From positions 682,001-746,000 of the forward strand of contig NZ_OZ075067.1 of NCBI RefSeq assembly GCF_964186585.1: a DNA stretch of 64,000 nt, written 5' to 3'. The position numbers were made by a program, and so were the translations under genes. The notes beneath the pieces are model-generated. The model made no database searches and was not told where the DNA came from. It saw only the letters and a list, made by a program, of their open reading frames with translations. Shown one piece after another: positions 12,327 to 45,239 of the stretch. Every line of letters begins with the position of its first letter. Within the stretch, counting starts at the first letter, position 1. Origin of the DNA: Microbacterium sp. MM2322. Lineage in GTDB: Bacteria > Actinomycetota > Actinomycetes > Actinomycetales > Microbacteriaceae.

Positions 12327-13652
12327 TCAGAACGGCGCGGGGTCTCCGGGTTGTGGCGGTGCGGCAGGGGTGAACGCGACGGCCGGGGTCGGTGCGTCTT
12401 CGCGGTAGGTCCTGCCGAGGGGTGAAGTCCATTCAAGAACGCCACCCTTCAGTTGTCGCACTCGCCAGGCGGTGAACTGCTTCATCGAATGATGCCTCTG
12501 GCACAGGTGCGCGATGTTGGAGAGTTCTGTCTGCCCGCCGAGGGCGTGATCGTGGGTGTGGTCGACCTCGCAGCGGATGGCGGCGACGCGGCATCCGGGG
12601 AACCGGCAGTGCTGATCCCGGGCTTGCAAGAACCGACGCATCCCGGAGGGGACGCGGTACGAGTCGGTTGCGATGGTCACGCCGGTGGTGGGGTCGTGGA
12701 ACAGCCGCTCCCAGACGCCGGTGTCTCCCGCGAGTGTCCGTGCCGATGCCGGGTCGATGGGGGAGCGGCCACCGAGGTCGCACGGCCCATCCTCTGCACC
12801 GGTCAGCGTCGCTGCAGGGAGGAGCACCTGCACCCGCGCCCGTATCGCGCCGAGCGGCCCTGCGGTGGTGTCGCGGGTGTCGTCGAGCGCTGGGGTTCCC
12901 GCAAGGAGCAGGTCGGCGAACACGTCTGCTCGCACCTGGTCGGTCGTGCGCGCATCGGTCGCGACGACGTTCGTGTCGTCGCCCGCCGCACGCTCGTCCC
13001 GCGTGTCGACGATCGCCCGAGCCTGCTGCGTCAGCCGATCGTGGATCCCCTCGGCGATCACCGTGGGGAGCGTCGCGACAAGATCGCTCATCCCGTCCCG
13101 CCCGGGAACCAGCCTCACGCAACGTCCGGCTGCGGCTTCTTCGTGTCGTTCCGCGAACGAGCGCGGATGCATCCGGTGCGCGAGGATCTCCAGCTCGCCC
13201 CGCACCCGGTTCGGGGTGTCCTGCTCGCACCGTTCGATCGCGATCGCCTCGAACTCGCCCCACATCTCGGCCGGCAGTGTCGTCCCGGCGTCGACGATTG
13301 CCCGCACATGCTCCCGGACGATCCGCCCCGACTCCCACGCCGCCACCGCGGCGGGGAACCCTTCGATGATCGTGCGGGCCTCGCCGATCCGGCGTTGCAC
13401 GGTCCGATCCGTCGTGCGCAGGACGCCGCCGACCTCGGCCGCGATCGACCGGAGCGCCATGTCGTGGAGGCGCACCTTGGCGTTCCTCGGCGCGGCCTGC
13501 TCTTCCGCCAGGCGACCGGCCGCAGCCAGTACGCGCAGCTGCTCGATCTGCGCCTGGGTGATCCGGCGCTCGATGCTCCCGACGTCCGCGACGATGCCCG
13601 CCAAGGTTGCGAGATAGTTCTCGCCACCGGGGGTTTCCATCGCTTCCGTCAT
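12327..13652 (-). CDS. DUF222 / HNH-endonuclease domain protein (copy 2)
   Basis: The start at 13652 (MTEAMETPGGENYL) is set by an AAGG-type ribosome site and by matching copy 3; the open frame upstream is non-coding antisense. The product has 441 residues: a helical DUF222 region, then HNH motifs CRFPGC, EVDHTHDHALGG, SNIAHLCQRHH and LEWTSPLGRTYRED, all intact. It is closely similar to copy 3 at 15966-17282 at both DNA and protein level, so the two arose by recent duplication or exchange. It is the undamaged member of that pair. Function is unknown beyond a likely HNH nuclease fold. Confidence 0.9.
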   Translation of the reverse strand: MTEAMETPGGENYLATLAGIVADVGSIERRITQAQIEQLRVLAAAGRLAEEQAAPRNAKVRLHDMALRSIAAEVGGVLRTTDRTVQRRIGEARTIIEGFPAAVAAWESGRIVREHVRAIVDAGTTLPAEMWGEFEAIAIERCEQDTPNRVRGELEILAHRMHPRSFAERHEEAAAGRCVRLVPGRDGMSDLVATLPTVIAEGIHDRLTQQARAIVDTRDERAAGDDTNVVATDARTTDQVRADVFADLLLAGTPALDDTRDTTAGPLGAIRARVQVLLPAATLTGAEDGPCDLGGRSPIDPASARTLAGDTGVWERLFHDPTTGVTIATDSYRVPSGMRRFLQARDQHCRFPGCRVAAIRCEVDHTHDHALGGQTELSNIAHLCQRHHSMKQFTAWRVRQLKGGVLEWTSPLGRTYREDAPTPAVAFTPAAPPQPGDPAPF

Positions 13653-15965: not shown

Positions 15966-17282
15966 TCAGAAGGGTGCGGTGTCTCCGGTGTGTGGGTTGG
16001 CAGGGGTGAAAGCGACGGCCGGTGTGGGTGCGTCTTCGCGATAGATCCTGCCGAGGGGTGAGGTCCACTCGAGGACGCCACCCTTCAGTTGTCGGACCCG
16101 CCAGGCGGTGAATTGCTTCATCGAGTGATGCCGTTGGCAGAGGTGAGCGAGGTTGCTCAGTTCGGTGAGCCCGCCGAGGGTGTGATCGTGGGTGTGGTCG
16201 ACTTCGCAGCGGATGGCTGCGACGCGGCATCCGGGGAACCGGCAGTGCTGGTCCCGGGCCTGCAGGAACCGGCGCATCCCGGCGGGAACACGGTACGAAT
16301 CGGTCGCGACCGTGACTCCGGTGGTCGGGTCGTGGAAGAGGCGTTCCCAGATTCGGGTGTTGCCGGCGAGTGTTCGCGCGGCGGCGGGGTCGATGGGGGA
16401 GCGGCCCGCGAGGTCGCACGGGCCGTCGTCGTCACCGGTCAGCGTCGCTGCGGGTACGAGGACTTGCACGCGGGCGCGGATCGCGCCGAGGGGACCTGCG
16501 GACGTGTCGCGGGTGTCGTCCAGAGCGGGTGTGCCGGCAAGCAGGAGGTCGGCAAACACGTCGGCCCGCACCTGATCGGTCGTCCGCGTATCCGAGGCGA
16601 TGACCTCCTACCCCGCCGCACGCTCTGCTCGAGTGTCGACGATCGCGCGAGCTTGCCGCGTGAGCCGATCGTGAATCCCTTCCGCGATCACCGTCGGCAG
16701 TGTCGCGACCAGATCGCTCATCCCATCCCGCCCTGGAACAAGCCGCACGCACCGGCCTGCGGCTGCTTCTCCGTGGCGTTCCGCGAACGACCTTGGGTGC
16801 ATCCGGTGGGCGAGGGTTTCGAGCTCACCCCGCACGCGGTTCGGCGTATCCCGCTCGCACCGTTCGATCGCGACCGATTCGAACTCGGCCCACATCTCCT
16901 GAGGCAGCACCCCGGCCGCGTCGACGATCGCAGTCACGTGCCCGCGGACGATCCGCCCCGACTCCCACGCGTCAACCGCGGCAGGGAACCCTTCGATGAT
17001 CGTCCGCGCTTCACCGATACGCCGTTGCACCGTGCGATCGGTGGTCCGCAGAACCCCGCCGACCTCGGCCGCGATCGAGCGCAATGCCATGTCGTGCAGT
17101 CGGACTTTCGCGTTGGTCGAGACGGCCTGTGCCGCTGCGAGACGTCCGGCCGCGGCGAGCACGCGCAGCTCGGCGATCTGCGCCGCAGCGACCTGGCGCG
17201 CGACGTCCGAGACATCCGCGACTATGCCCGCCAGAGCGGCGAGATAGCTCTCGCCACCGGGGGTTTCCGTCGCTTCCGTCAT
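15966..17282 (-). pseudogene. DUF222 / HNH protein (copy 3), interrupted by an in-frame amber codon
   Basis: The frame from ATG 17282 (MTEATETPGGES) to the stop at 15966 matches copy 2 along its length, except for a TAG at 16608-16610 after VDTRAERAAG. Compared with copy 2 (AAGDDTNVVATDARTTD) this copy reads AAG*EVIASDTRTTD, so two codons are missing and one is a stop; the frame is the same on both sides. The N-terminal piece is 224 residues. The C-terminal piece keeps a complete HNH motif and could in principle start at GTG 16571. Ribosome site GGAGG precedes the start. A sequencing error cannot be excluded. Confidence 0.85.
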
Positions 17283-43801: not shown

Positions 43802-43856
43802 CCCTCCTCGAGTCGTCGCGCTCCTCGAGCGACTCCGGCGGGCCGTCGTCCCCCGG

Positions 43857-43907
43857 TTCCCCTGTCGCAACACGCCGTGCGGCGCCGCCATTCGTGACGG
43901 GGGAGCG
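43857..43907 (+). repeat. palindromic repeat, copy A1
   Basis: 51 bp, opening TTCCCCTGTCGCAACACGCC and closing GTGACGGGGGAGCG. Its ends are inverted relative to each other (CCCCTGTC against GACGGGGG, one mismatch), so it can fold. It matches A2 at 47 of 51 positions with no gaps. Confidence 0.8.
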
Positions 43908-43930
43908 AGGTGCCCGGGCCGCCACCGCCA

Positions 43931-43981
43931 TTCCCCTGTCGCGACTCGCCGTGCGGCGCTGCCATTCGTGACAGGGGAGCG
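43931..43981 (+). repeat. palindromic repeat, copy A2
   Basis: 51 bp, 74 bp after A1, with perfect CCCCTGTC/GACAGGGG ends. Its last base directly abuts the stop codon of the nuclease-like gene (43982-43984). Confidence 0.82.
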
Positions 43982-44932
43982 TCAACGAGCTCGCAGCGCG
44001 GCCGCGACCTTGTTCGCTGCGCGCTCTGTCCGCCCGAACAGGTCGGCTTTCGTGATGCGCACGACTGCCCAGCCGGCGGAGCGGAGCGCGTCGTACCGAT
44101 CTATGTCGTAGGCCCATTGCTGGGCGTCGAGGAGGTGATGCTCGCCCTCGTACTCGACGGCGACGCGCGACTCGGGGTACACGAGATCCGCTGTCGCGAC
44201 CACGCGTCCGTCGATGATGACCGGATGGTTGAGCTCCGGCTCGGGCAGACCCGCGTCGAGCAGTGCCAGCCGAAGATGGCTCTCGGGGCGCGACGCGGAG
44301 CCCATCCTGAGAAGGGGGAGAGCGTCGCGAAGCGAGCGGATGCCGACACGTCGGCCCGTGTCGAGGACCTCCGCGAGCTCGTCGATGGTGGCAAGCGGAT
44401 GCCGCACACGCCACGTCCGGATGATCGCATCGCCTGCGGCGACGAGATCGCGCTCCGATCGGAGGACCGAGCCGAGAGCCGCCCACGTCGACGCAGGGTC
44501 CGTCGTCCGGAGGCCGGTGCGGGGTTCGACGGTGACGGTCGTGCTTCCCGCCGTGACCTCATGCCCGCGGACGCCTCTCGACCGGGGCAGGCGAAGGGGG
44601 CCTGTGACGCAGACGTGCAGACGCGGGTCTTCCAGCACGCTCAGGGGGAGGGGAATGTCCCAGAGAATCGCAGCGGTCACATGGCTGAAGGCCTCGTGGG
44701 GCAGCATCCTCTGGGCATACTGTCGCGCGCGGCGGATGTGAGCCGACTCAGCGGCTCCGCGCGGCTGCCCGTGTCGATCGTGGTCGTCGCCATCGCTGAC
44801 TCCTCTCCGTTCCCGAATACCGTGGAACGGTCGAATCAGGTCGCCTCGGCGAAGCCGGCTGACCGAGGCGACCGCAGCGCGGGCGGAGGCGACGGAGAAC
44901 CGGTCGCCGAGCGTGAGGGGGAGGGGCATCAT
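43982..44932 (-). CDS. DUF559/Vsr-like endonuclease-domain protein framed by repeats
   Basis: The ATG at 44932 (MMPLPLTLGDRF) is preferred; CATTCT lies six bases before it. The product has 316 residues. The N-terminal third looks like a winged-helix AbiEi-type region (ASVSRLRRGDLIRPFHGIR) followed by SHVTAAILWDIPLP and LHVCVTGP. The C-terminal part (about 230-316) is a PD-(D/E)XK-like DUF559 domain: HPVIIDGRVVATADLVYPESRVAVEYEGEHH, then YDIDRYDALRSAGWAVVRITKADL. Two copies of a palindromic repeat lie at each end in opposite orientation. Activity and target are unknown. Confidence 0.75.
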   Translation of the reverse strand: MMPLPLTLGDRFSVASARAAVASVSRLRRGDLIRPFHGIRERRGVSDGDDHDRHGQPRGAAESAHIRRARQYAQRMLPHEAFSHVTAAILWDIPLPLSVLEDPRLHVCVTGPLRLPRSRGVRGHEVTAGSTTVTVEPRTGLRTTDPASTWAALGSVLRSERDLVAAGDAIIRTWRVRHPLATIDELAEVLDTGRRVGIRSLRDALPLLRMGSASRPESHLRLALLDAGLPEPELNHPVIIDGRVVATADLVYPESRVAVEYEGEHHLLDAQQWAYDIDRYDALRSAGWAVVRITKADLFGRTERAANKVAAALRAR

Positions 44933-45023
44933 GCGTCGAGAATGCGTCCCGATCCCGGTGGTCGGGCCCGTTCGCCGGCGCACAGGGGGCAGACGCCGTC
45001 GAGGCGCGCCTGGGGAGGAGCCG

Positions 45024-45077
45024 CTCGCCTGTCGCGAAGTGCAGAGGGCCGCGGCGTGTTGCGACAGGGGAGGGATG
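45024..45077 (-). repeat. palindromic repeat, copy B1
   Basis: 54 bp; on the minus strand it contains TCCCCTGTCGCAACACGCCG, identical over 20 bases to the start of A1, so it is the same family in opposite orientation. Its ends CCTGTCGC/GCGACAGG are inverted. Confidence 0.82.
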
Positions 45078-45107
45078 GAGGGGGCTGCGGCGGGAGCGGT
45101 GGCCGCT

Positions 45108-45161
45108 CTCGCCTGTCGCGAAGTGCAGAGGGCCGCGGCGTGTTGCGACAGGGGAGGGATG
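45108..45161 (-). repeat. palindromic repeat, copy B2
   Basis: 54 bp, identical at every position to B1 and 84 bp from it. The B pair fills much of the 308-base gap between the nuclease-like gene and the aminopeptidase; the rest of that gap holds only the aminopeptidase promoter region (TACGAT at 45194-45199). Confidence 0.85.
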
Positions 45162-45239
45162 CCGCCACGGGGTTGCGCCGGACCTGGCCGAACTACGATC
45201 GGAGGGTCCCGCCCGGCATCCTTCTCTGGAGGTACACCC

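What the first reader, a model, noticed from the sequence alone, without database searches (positions are those of the whole stretch)
43857..45161. Nuclease-like gene framed by four copies of one palindromic repeat in opposing orientation
Seen directly: A1 and A2 (51 bp, 4 differences) sit at one end of the DUF559/Vsr-like gene, and B1 and B2 (54 bp, identical) at the other. The minus strand of B shares 20 consecutive bases (TCCCCTGTCGCAACACGCCG) with A1, so all four are one family, inverted about the gene. Each unit also has inverted ends (CCCCTGTC/GACAGGGG in A2; CCTGTCGC/GCGACAGG in B), so it can fold. A2 touches the stop codon. Inference: this could be a nuclease with its own recognition hairpins (compare REP/RAYT pairs), a mobile unit with nested ends, or a self-regulating locus. 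The identical B pair suggests recent copying. I know of no described system with this layout.
Basis: partly seen in the sequence, partly recalled or inferred. Interest (0 to 1): 0.76.

Follow-up and report, generated by a model that had tools for sequence, protein, structure and literature searches.

The report
Nuclease genes with matching palindrome repeats
In actinobacteria such as Microbacterium, genes for one kind of predicted DNA-cutting protein sit between copies of a palindromic DNA repeat that differs from gene to gene, and some of these repeats have spread through the genome, which looks like an unrelated counterpart of the known REP repeats and their transposases.

Summary
A1, A2, B1 and B2 are 47-bp palindromes (51 bp with end dinucleotides) around a 316-aa DUF559 gene. 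At least 32 such units lie at 18 sites of the host genome. All 8 of its DUF559 genes have similar sequence on their two sides, mostly different palindromes. In relatives (Microbacterium, Arthrobacter, Leucobacter, Frigoribacterium and others) the two flanks of the gene resemble each other in 52 of 71 loci, against 9 of 141 controls. Many flank palindromes end in GYTC and have set lengths, 61 or 51 bp. Of 20 genomes with the window's gene clade, 19 hold 7 or more units, against 13 of 275 others. A second palindrome family is most numerous in three genomes whose DUF559 gene is flanked by it. The predicted protein joins an AbiEi-like part to a Vsr/EDxHD homing-endonuclease domain. Best reading: a REP/RAYT-like pairing built on an unrelated nuclease. 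The pairing is well supported; binding, cutting and spreading are inferred, and no clean empty site was found.

The parts
43858..43904 (+). Unit A1, 47-bp palindrome (51 bp as 43856-43906)
43932..43978 (+). Unit A2, 47-bp palindrome, 74 bp after A1, ends 3 bp before the stop codon of the gene
   Evidence: fold z -3.98
43982..44932 (-). DUF559 / MTES_1575 gene, 316 aa (start inferred from homologs)
   Evidence: Pfam DUF559 21.7 bits over cut-off 20.6, MTES_1575 31.8 bits under its cut-off 38.2; alignment A3
43985..44299 (-). Nuclease domain like I-Bth0305I and Vsr (residues 213-317 of the model; E218, H267, D277 invariant and D250 at least 90% in 29 homologs)
44306..44935 (-). N-terminal part resembling AbiEi antitoxin and Rv2827c (residues 1-210 of the model)
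45025..45071 (-). Unit B1, upstream of the gene, same orientation relative to the gene as B2
45109..45155 (-). Unit B2, identical to B1, 84 bp apart
43813..45163 (.). Stretch without counterpart in G015 and G071, which hold a LigD-polymerase-like gene at this place; homology ends at 43812 and resumes at 45163/45164, just outside B2 and 46 bp outside A1

Best explanation
Each such gene encodes a nuclease whose AbiEi-like part, as a dimer (inferred), binds the two half-sites of its own palindrome, and whose Vsr/EDxHD domain nicks or cuts there (inferred). The gene is kept between copies of that palindrome. Repair of breaks from another copy would multiply the palindrome in tandem and disperse it, mostly downstream of genes where it does little harm. 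Shown here: gene and palindrome are paired in many lineages, genes of different clades have different palindromes, the shape is set (GYTC ends, 61 or 51 bp), and two palindrome families are most numerous in genomes that hold the matching gene. Inferred: binding, cutting, dispersal, and that cutting must be conditional (a nick, single strand, cruciform or fork), because the host lives with at least 32 copies.
For: Six DUF559 genes flanked on both sides by units form the largest recurrent family among the genes next to the sites examined. Flank-to-flank similarity over control: 26 of 30 loci, 52 of 71 against 9 of 141 and 0 of 150, 8 of 8 genes of the host genome over the control maximum. Palindromes 2.2 per kb in flanks against 0.36 in control stretches; 48 GYTC-ended ones with lengths 61 (33), 51 (7), 53 (4), 50 (2), 60 and 62 (1 each), control 2. 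Gene clade and dispersed units: 19 of 20 against 13 of 275 genomes; 11 of 12 against 13 of 275 after leaving out the 8 genomes that seeded the gene model. Dispersed units match own-genome gene flanks better than others', p 0.0001 in 12 genomes outside the core clade. Second family: 22, 14 and 11 copies in three genomes with a matching gene flank. Homing-endonuclease and AbiEi folds. Reported: I-Bth0305I dimerises on a target of nearly 60 bp (PMC3943268, passages); AbiEi binds two 23-bp inverted repeats 3 bp apart (PMC7319586, passages).
Against: No binding, cutting or movement was observed, and no empty site with clean borders was found. 19 of 71 loci fail the flank test. 13 genomes hold 7 or more units without a close homolog at 400 bits, among them G071 with 15. 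In one search the own flank ranks 17th to 20th of 20 for G060, G067, G071 and G077. Eight other genomes' loci: L255, whose flank carries an arm of the second family, lies in a genome with 0 copies, and L217, L237, L271, L222 in genomes with 2, 2, 3, 6. Intact nuclease plus many intact sites in one cell needs an added assumption.
Confidence: 0.55

Rival explanations
1. The protein is foremost an AbiEi-type repressor. The palindromes are its operators, dispersed copies form a regulon or a sink that titrates the protein, and the nuclease domain is secondary.
For: AbiEi-like N-terminal fold. AbiEi and Rv2827c bind inverted repeats in their own promoters (PMC7319586, passages), and two 23-bp repeats 3 bp apart make 49 bp, close to the 51-bp class. 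Arms behave like independent half-sites.
Against: Palindromes also lie downstream of the genes. Dispersed units avoid divergent regions: 41 convergent, 38 codirectional, 7 divergent of 88 sites, and 121 of 173 neighbouring gene ends are 3' ends (tests). The nuclease residues are conserved.
Confidence: 0.25
2. The whole unit, palindromes and gene, is itself a mobile element with palindromic ends, like an insertion sequence or a free-standing homing gene; dispersed single palindromes are its remains.
For: In G015 and G071 the stretch 43813-45163 is replaced by another gene, with borders near the outermost units. Neighbourhoods of the six double-flanked genes fall into three groups. Homing-endonuclease fold.
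Against: The swap is not an empty site and one border is 46 bp off. Plasmid and phage collections hold few and partial relatives: 4 of 72,556 and 1 of 50,697 records, none covering 80%. Target duplications were not seen.
Confidence: 0.12
3. The gene is a defence or toxin-antitoxin factor, and the palindromes only control it.
For: AbiEi resemblance and a nuclease domain.
Against: Only a chance-level PADLOC match (mREase_II, E 0.051). The immediate neighbours are an MFS transporter and an M18 aminopeptidase, not an AbiEii toxin. Does not explain dispersed units.
Confidence: 0.05
4. Ordinary REP-like repeats that happen to lie by this gene.
For: The repeats are genome-wide and intergenic, and only one of the eight DUF559 genes found in the host has this particular repeat.
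Against: All the association tests.
Confidence: 0.03

Closest known systems
REP elements with RAYT / TnpA-REP (REPtrons)
   Same: A gene flanked by palindromes that also occur dispersed between genes, with a matching palindrome for each enzyme (PMC2817692, abstract and passages; PMC8266576, abstract).
   Different: The enzyme is a Vsr/EDxHD-like nuclease, not a HUH tyrosine transposase; none of that family was found in the host. Palindromes are 51 or 61 bp with GYTC at both ends, not short stem-loops with a GTAG tag at one end.
EDxHD homing endonucleases (I-Bth0305I) and Vsr
   Same: Fold of the C-terminal domain, conserved E, D, H, D residues (the matching of these to the motif is mine), long dimeric target reported for I-Bth0305I (PMC3943268, passages).
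   Different: No intron or intein was seen; the gene lies between intact palindromes, and sites are dispersed in the same genome.
AbiEi antitoxins (AbiEi, Rv2827c)
   Same: N-terminal fold; inverted-repeat binding sites near the own gene (PMC7319586, passages).
   Different: A nuclease domain follows, the neighbouring genes are no toxin, palindromes lie on both sides and elsewhere.
CGTC-tagged REPs
   Same: Dispersed palindromes without a RAYT; the second family here happens to contain CGTC.
   Different: Reported from other phyla, tagged at one end, and said to lack a dedicated transposase (PMC3733652, abstract and passages). No relation was tested.

Membership tests
REP/RAYT | HUH (Y1) tyrosine transposase encoded between the repeats | tested here: not met
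   PF01797 has no match in the host genome; the gene between the repeats is DUF559 with a Vsr-like fold.
REP/RAYT | GTAG-type tag at one end of the repeat | tested here: not met
   Host units begin TCSCC or GYTC-like and end alike; the tag of other clades is GYTC at both ends.
REP/RAYT | Gene flanked by its repeats, which are also dispersed outside genes | tested here: met
   Both-side flanking in 10 of 30 loci for this repeat and dispersed intergenic copies.
EDxHD / Vsr nucleases | Fold of the catalytic domain | tested here: met
EDxHD / Vsr nucleases | Conserved E, D, H, D residues | tested here: met
   E218, H267, D277 invariant and D250 in at least 90% of 29 homologs.
EDxHD / Vsr nucleases | Cleavage of a long target | not testable with these tools
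   Needs purified protein.
Homing endonuclease genes | Gene inside an intron or intein, or interrupting its own target | tested here: inconclusive
   Intact palindromes lie on both sides; no clean empty site was found to show what was interrupted. No search for introns was made.
AbiE type IV toxin-antitoxin | AbiEi-like two-domain fold | tested here: met
AbiE type IV toxin-antitoxin | Adjacent AbiEii nucleotidyltransferase toxin gene | tested here: not met
   The immediate neighbours match MFS_1 and Peptidase_M18 in Pfam.

The most novel reading that the evidence does not exclude
A second, independently evolved way to make and keep dispersed genomic palindromes: a family of AbiEi-Vsr nucleases in actinobacteria, each with its own 51- or 61-bp target that it copies by break repair, so that one chromosome can hold six to eight different nuclease-palindrome pairs. 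By extension, palindrome families elsewhere that lack a RAYT may have nuclease partners of this kind.
Probability: 0.45. Interest if true: 0.92.

Novelty: categorically new. Interest (0 to 1): 0.85.

Why it matters
Dispersed palindromes are widespread in bacteria, and in the papers seen here the enzyme assigned to them is the RAYT, for the GTAG class. This pairs an unrelated predicted nuclease family, so far a domain of unknown function, with palindromes, and offers many natural protein/site pairs whose specificities can be compared. It turns DUF559 into a testable class of long-site nucleases or DNA-binding proteins and raises the question how a cell tolerates dozens of sites for its own nuclease.

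Tried and rejected
RAYT as driver: no PF01797 match in the host genome. DUF222-HNH genes as driver: two of 13 DUF222 genes of the host have three-unit arrays upstream, but those two proteins are 90% identical, and in the clustering of neighbours the family flanked on both sides was DUF559. Hairpin under selection: arms do not covary more than shuffles; of three window units folded, only A2 beats shuffles, though fully paired units exist in relatives (L180, z -11.9; L276, z -10.3). Known RNA family: one match, below its gathering score. Empty-site test: stretches of G015 chosen by guessed synteny gave both flanks for 4 of the 18 host sites (413, 453, 582 and 592 kb); at none is the absence clean, and at 413 kb G071 shares the unit. 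Tree: a quick tree of 72 rows (the careful search did not finish) shows at most weak clustering of the length class, 26 changes against a shuffled mean of 29.7, as low in 18 of 200. Other phyla were not tested. Literature: eight searches of one open-access library; the listings showed no paper whose title or abstract start joins DUF559 to palindromic repeats, and DUF559 with Microbacterium gave 0 papers. Passages were seen of PMC12306157, PMC2817692, PMC3943268, PMC7319586 and PMC3733652, outline and abstract of PMC8266576; nothing was read whole. Subscription journals are mostly not held.

Limits of the counts: one search scores at most 20 candidates a genome, so 20 means 20 or more. each report 295 genomes of the genus and are taken to be the same set. 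The 400-bit cut was chosen after seeing the list, the 8 proteins of the query alignment came from genomes already known to have repeats (one search leaves them out), and related genomes count separately. The 42 genomes were picked partly because they are rich in repeats. The sites are those fetched from the top of a cut list, not all. One search used 71 of 79 loci: four at contig ends were left out by me and four had short flanks. Its same-locus control has a tail (top value 54.4), so a score over 18 is not proof for a single locus. In one search similarity was computed but palindromes were judged by eye: L010 and L012 are not clearly palindromic. Gene calls come from a home-made script. The GYTC tag was noticed in these same loci before it was counted. 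In one search the dispersed unit of G043 lies beside its gene; it is among the eight left out in the second test.

Full report
What is in the window. A 316-aa gene on the minus strand (43982-44932) matches Pfam DUF559 over its cut-off and MTES_1575 below it. Downstream of it lie A1 and A2, upstream B1 and B2, copies of one palindrome of exactly 47 bp. The gene meets an MFS transporter gene convergently and diverges from an M18 aminopeptidase gene.

The repeat is genome-wide. In stretches of the host genome (3.09 Mb) picked by pattern and similarity searches, 32 units of exactly 47 bp lie at 18 sites when units within 1 kb are joined; this is a lower bound. A covariance model of the 32 found matches in 79 of 295 genomes of the genus. 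Over 88 fetched sites in nine genomes (the host and eight relatives), 41 are convergent, 38 codirectional, 7 divergent, 1 inside a predicted gene and 1 unclear; 121 of 173 neighbouring gene ends are 3' ends (both biases p below 1e-6). Of 76 neighbouring unit pairs less than 200 bp apart, 72 have the same orientation; the start-to-start distance is 73 or 74 bp in 39 and 64 bp in 7.

The gene link. When the genes next to these sites were clustered, the largest family was DUF559: six genes, each with units on both sides, in three neighbourhoods (that these are DUF559 homologs follows from their places). Among 30 homolog loci kept from a search of 42 genomes, 10 have this repeat on both sides. The rest were checked without assuming the repeat. 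Several carry other palindromes, much the same on both sides of the gene (16 of 256 control windows of 700 bp held any palindrome), and flank-to-flank similarity exceeded the highest of 60 random-position controls in 26 of 30 loci; L188, L198, L200 (contig end) and L210 did not. In the host genome all 8 DUF559 genes found score 19.4 to 45.5 by the same measure (that control's maximum is 17.3), with different shared segments; six look palindromic by eye, L010 and L012 do not clearly. So the fact that only one of the eight has this particular repeat points to specificity rather than to lack of a link.

Named relatives. A scan of GTDB species genomes gave 79 loci, in Microbacterium, Arthrobacter, Leucobacter, Frigoribacterium, Occultella, Mycetocola and unclassified actinobacteria. 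Similarity between flanks exceeded 18 in 52 of 71 testable loci, against 9 of 141 control pairs from the same loci and 0 of 150 mismatched flanks (Fisher 4e-24). A dyad scan found a palindrome in both flanks in 42 of 71 loci. Palindromes are 2.2 per kb in flanks (110 in 49.7 kb) and 0.36 per kb in control stretches (50 in 140.8 kb); 59 of 71 loci have at least one. Palindromes ending in GYTC..GARC number 48 in the flanks of 33 loci, with lengths 61 (33), 51 (7), 53 (4), 50 (2), 60 (1) and 62 (1); the larger control stretches gave 2. The two main lengths differ by 10 bp, about one helical turn.

Co-occurrence. Of 295 genomes of the genus, the 20 with homologs of 400 bits or more hold 7 or more units in 19 cases; the other 275 do so in 13. 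Without the 8 genomes whose proteins made the query, it is 11 of 12 against 13 of 275. A dispersed unit resembles gene flanks of its own genome more than those of others: mean 21.1 against 14.4 in 20 genomes, none of 20,000 permutations as high, and p 0.0001 in the 12 genomes outside the core clade; the own flank ranks first in 7 of 20 and 17th to 20th in 4. A second family, CGTCRCNNATG..CATNNGYGACG, was sought in 55 genomes (two of 57 handles were not held). Copies: 22 in M. helvum, 14 in M. kunmingense, 11 in Microbacterium sp. AK009, 1 to 6 in 16 more, none in 36; the reversed pattern gave none anywhere. Those three genomes are the ones of loci L276, L245 and L250, whose gene flanks hold the full palindrome; of five other loci with arms of this kind, the genomes hold 2 (L217), 6 (L222), 2 (L237), 3 (L271) and 0 (L255). 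The host holds 4. Listed hits are nearly all 46 or 47 bp although the pattern allowed 34 to 62.

How it may work. The arms of 30 distinct host units do not covary more than shuffles, and column 3 pairs with column 45 in only 7 of 30, so the arms look like two half-sites read in duplex DNA. With a nuclease attached and many copies in the genome, conditional nicking followed by copying from a sister site is the simplest account of arrays, dispersal and matching. This part is inference. The operator reading explains upstream palindromes and the fold, but not the downstream palindromes or the scarcity of divergent sites.

What does not fit or is open. No empty site with intact borders was found. 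19 of 71 loci fail the flank test. Plasmids and phages hold few, partial relatives (4 of 72,556 and 1 of 50,697 records). Novelty rests on eight searches of one open-access library.

Verdict. The pairing of DUF559 genes with gene-specific palindromes is strongly supported. It fails defining features of REP/RAYT (enzyme and tag) while resembling it in layout and distribution, and the AbiE toxin partner is not next to it. I rate it categorically new as a system, with the mechanism at about even odds.

Noticed in passing
G000:C1 592529-593749 and 2179009-2180244 (L068, L070): Two DUF222-HNH genes, 90% identical in protein, each start about 70 bp after a three-unit array of the window's repeat.
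   Followed up: partly
window about 2097-2996, 12615-13529, 16251-17171: Three of the 13 DUF222 genes of the host lie in this window, one with an internal stop.
   Followed up: no
L160 (G206:C2, 12,324 bp) and L159: A small contig holds the same two-unit array twice in opposite orientation and repeats chromosomal sequence next to it; a fold-back, an assembly artefact or a real rearrangement.
   Followed up: no
G000:C1: 17 of the 18 unit sites lie outside 0.73-2.18 Mb; whether this reflects distance from the origin was not tested.
   Followed up: no
L166, L168, L152: Arrays of up to seven units with 26-bp spacers that are nearly identical within an array, as if whole 73-bp units had been duplicated.
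   Followed up: no
PDB 3hrl (Neisseria) and CGTC-tagged REPs: The nearest solved structure by sequence is a Neisseria endonuclease-like protein, and Neisseriae carry CGTC REPs said to lack an enzyme. An idea only.
   Followed up: no
L230: A contig filed as Planococcus carries an actinobacterial-type DUF559 gene that groups with Microbacteriaceae in the quick tree; probably contamination or a misnamed record.
   Followed up: no
L316, L317 about 213-1394: G015 and G071 have a LigD primase-polymerase gene where the window has the DUF559 unit (Pfam run on L316 only).
   Followed up: partly
G015:C1 2246436-2246482: A unit of the second palindrome family lies about 50 bp from a DUF559 homolog at 2246535-2247362 in G015.
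   Followed up: no
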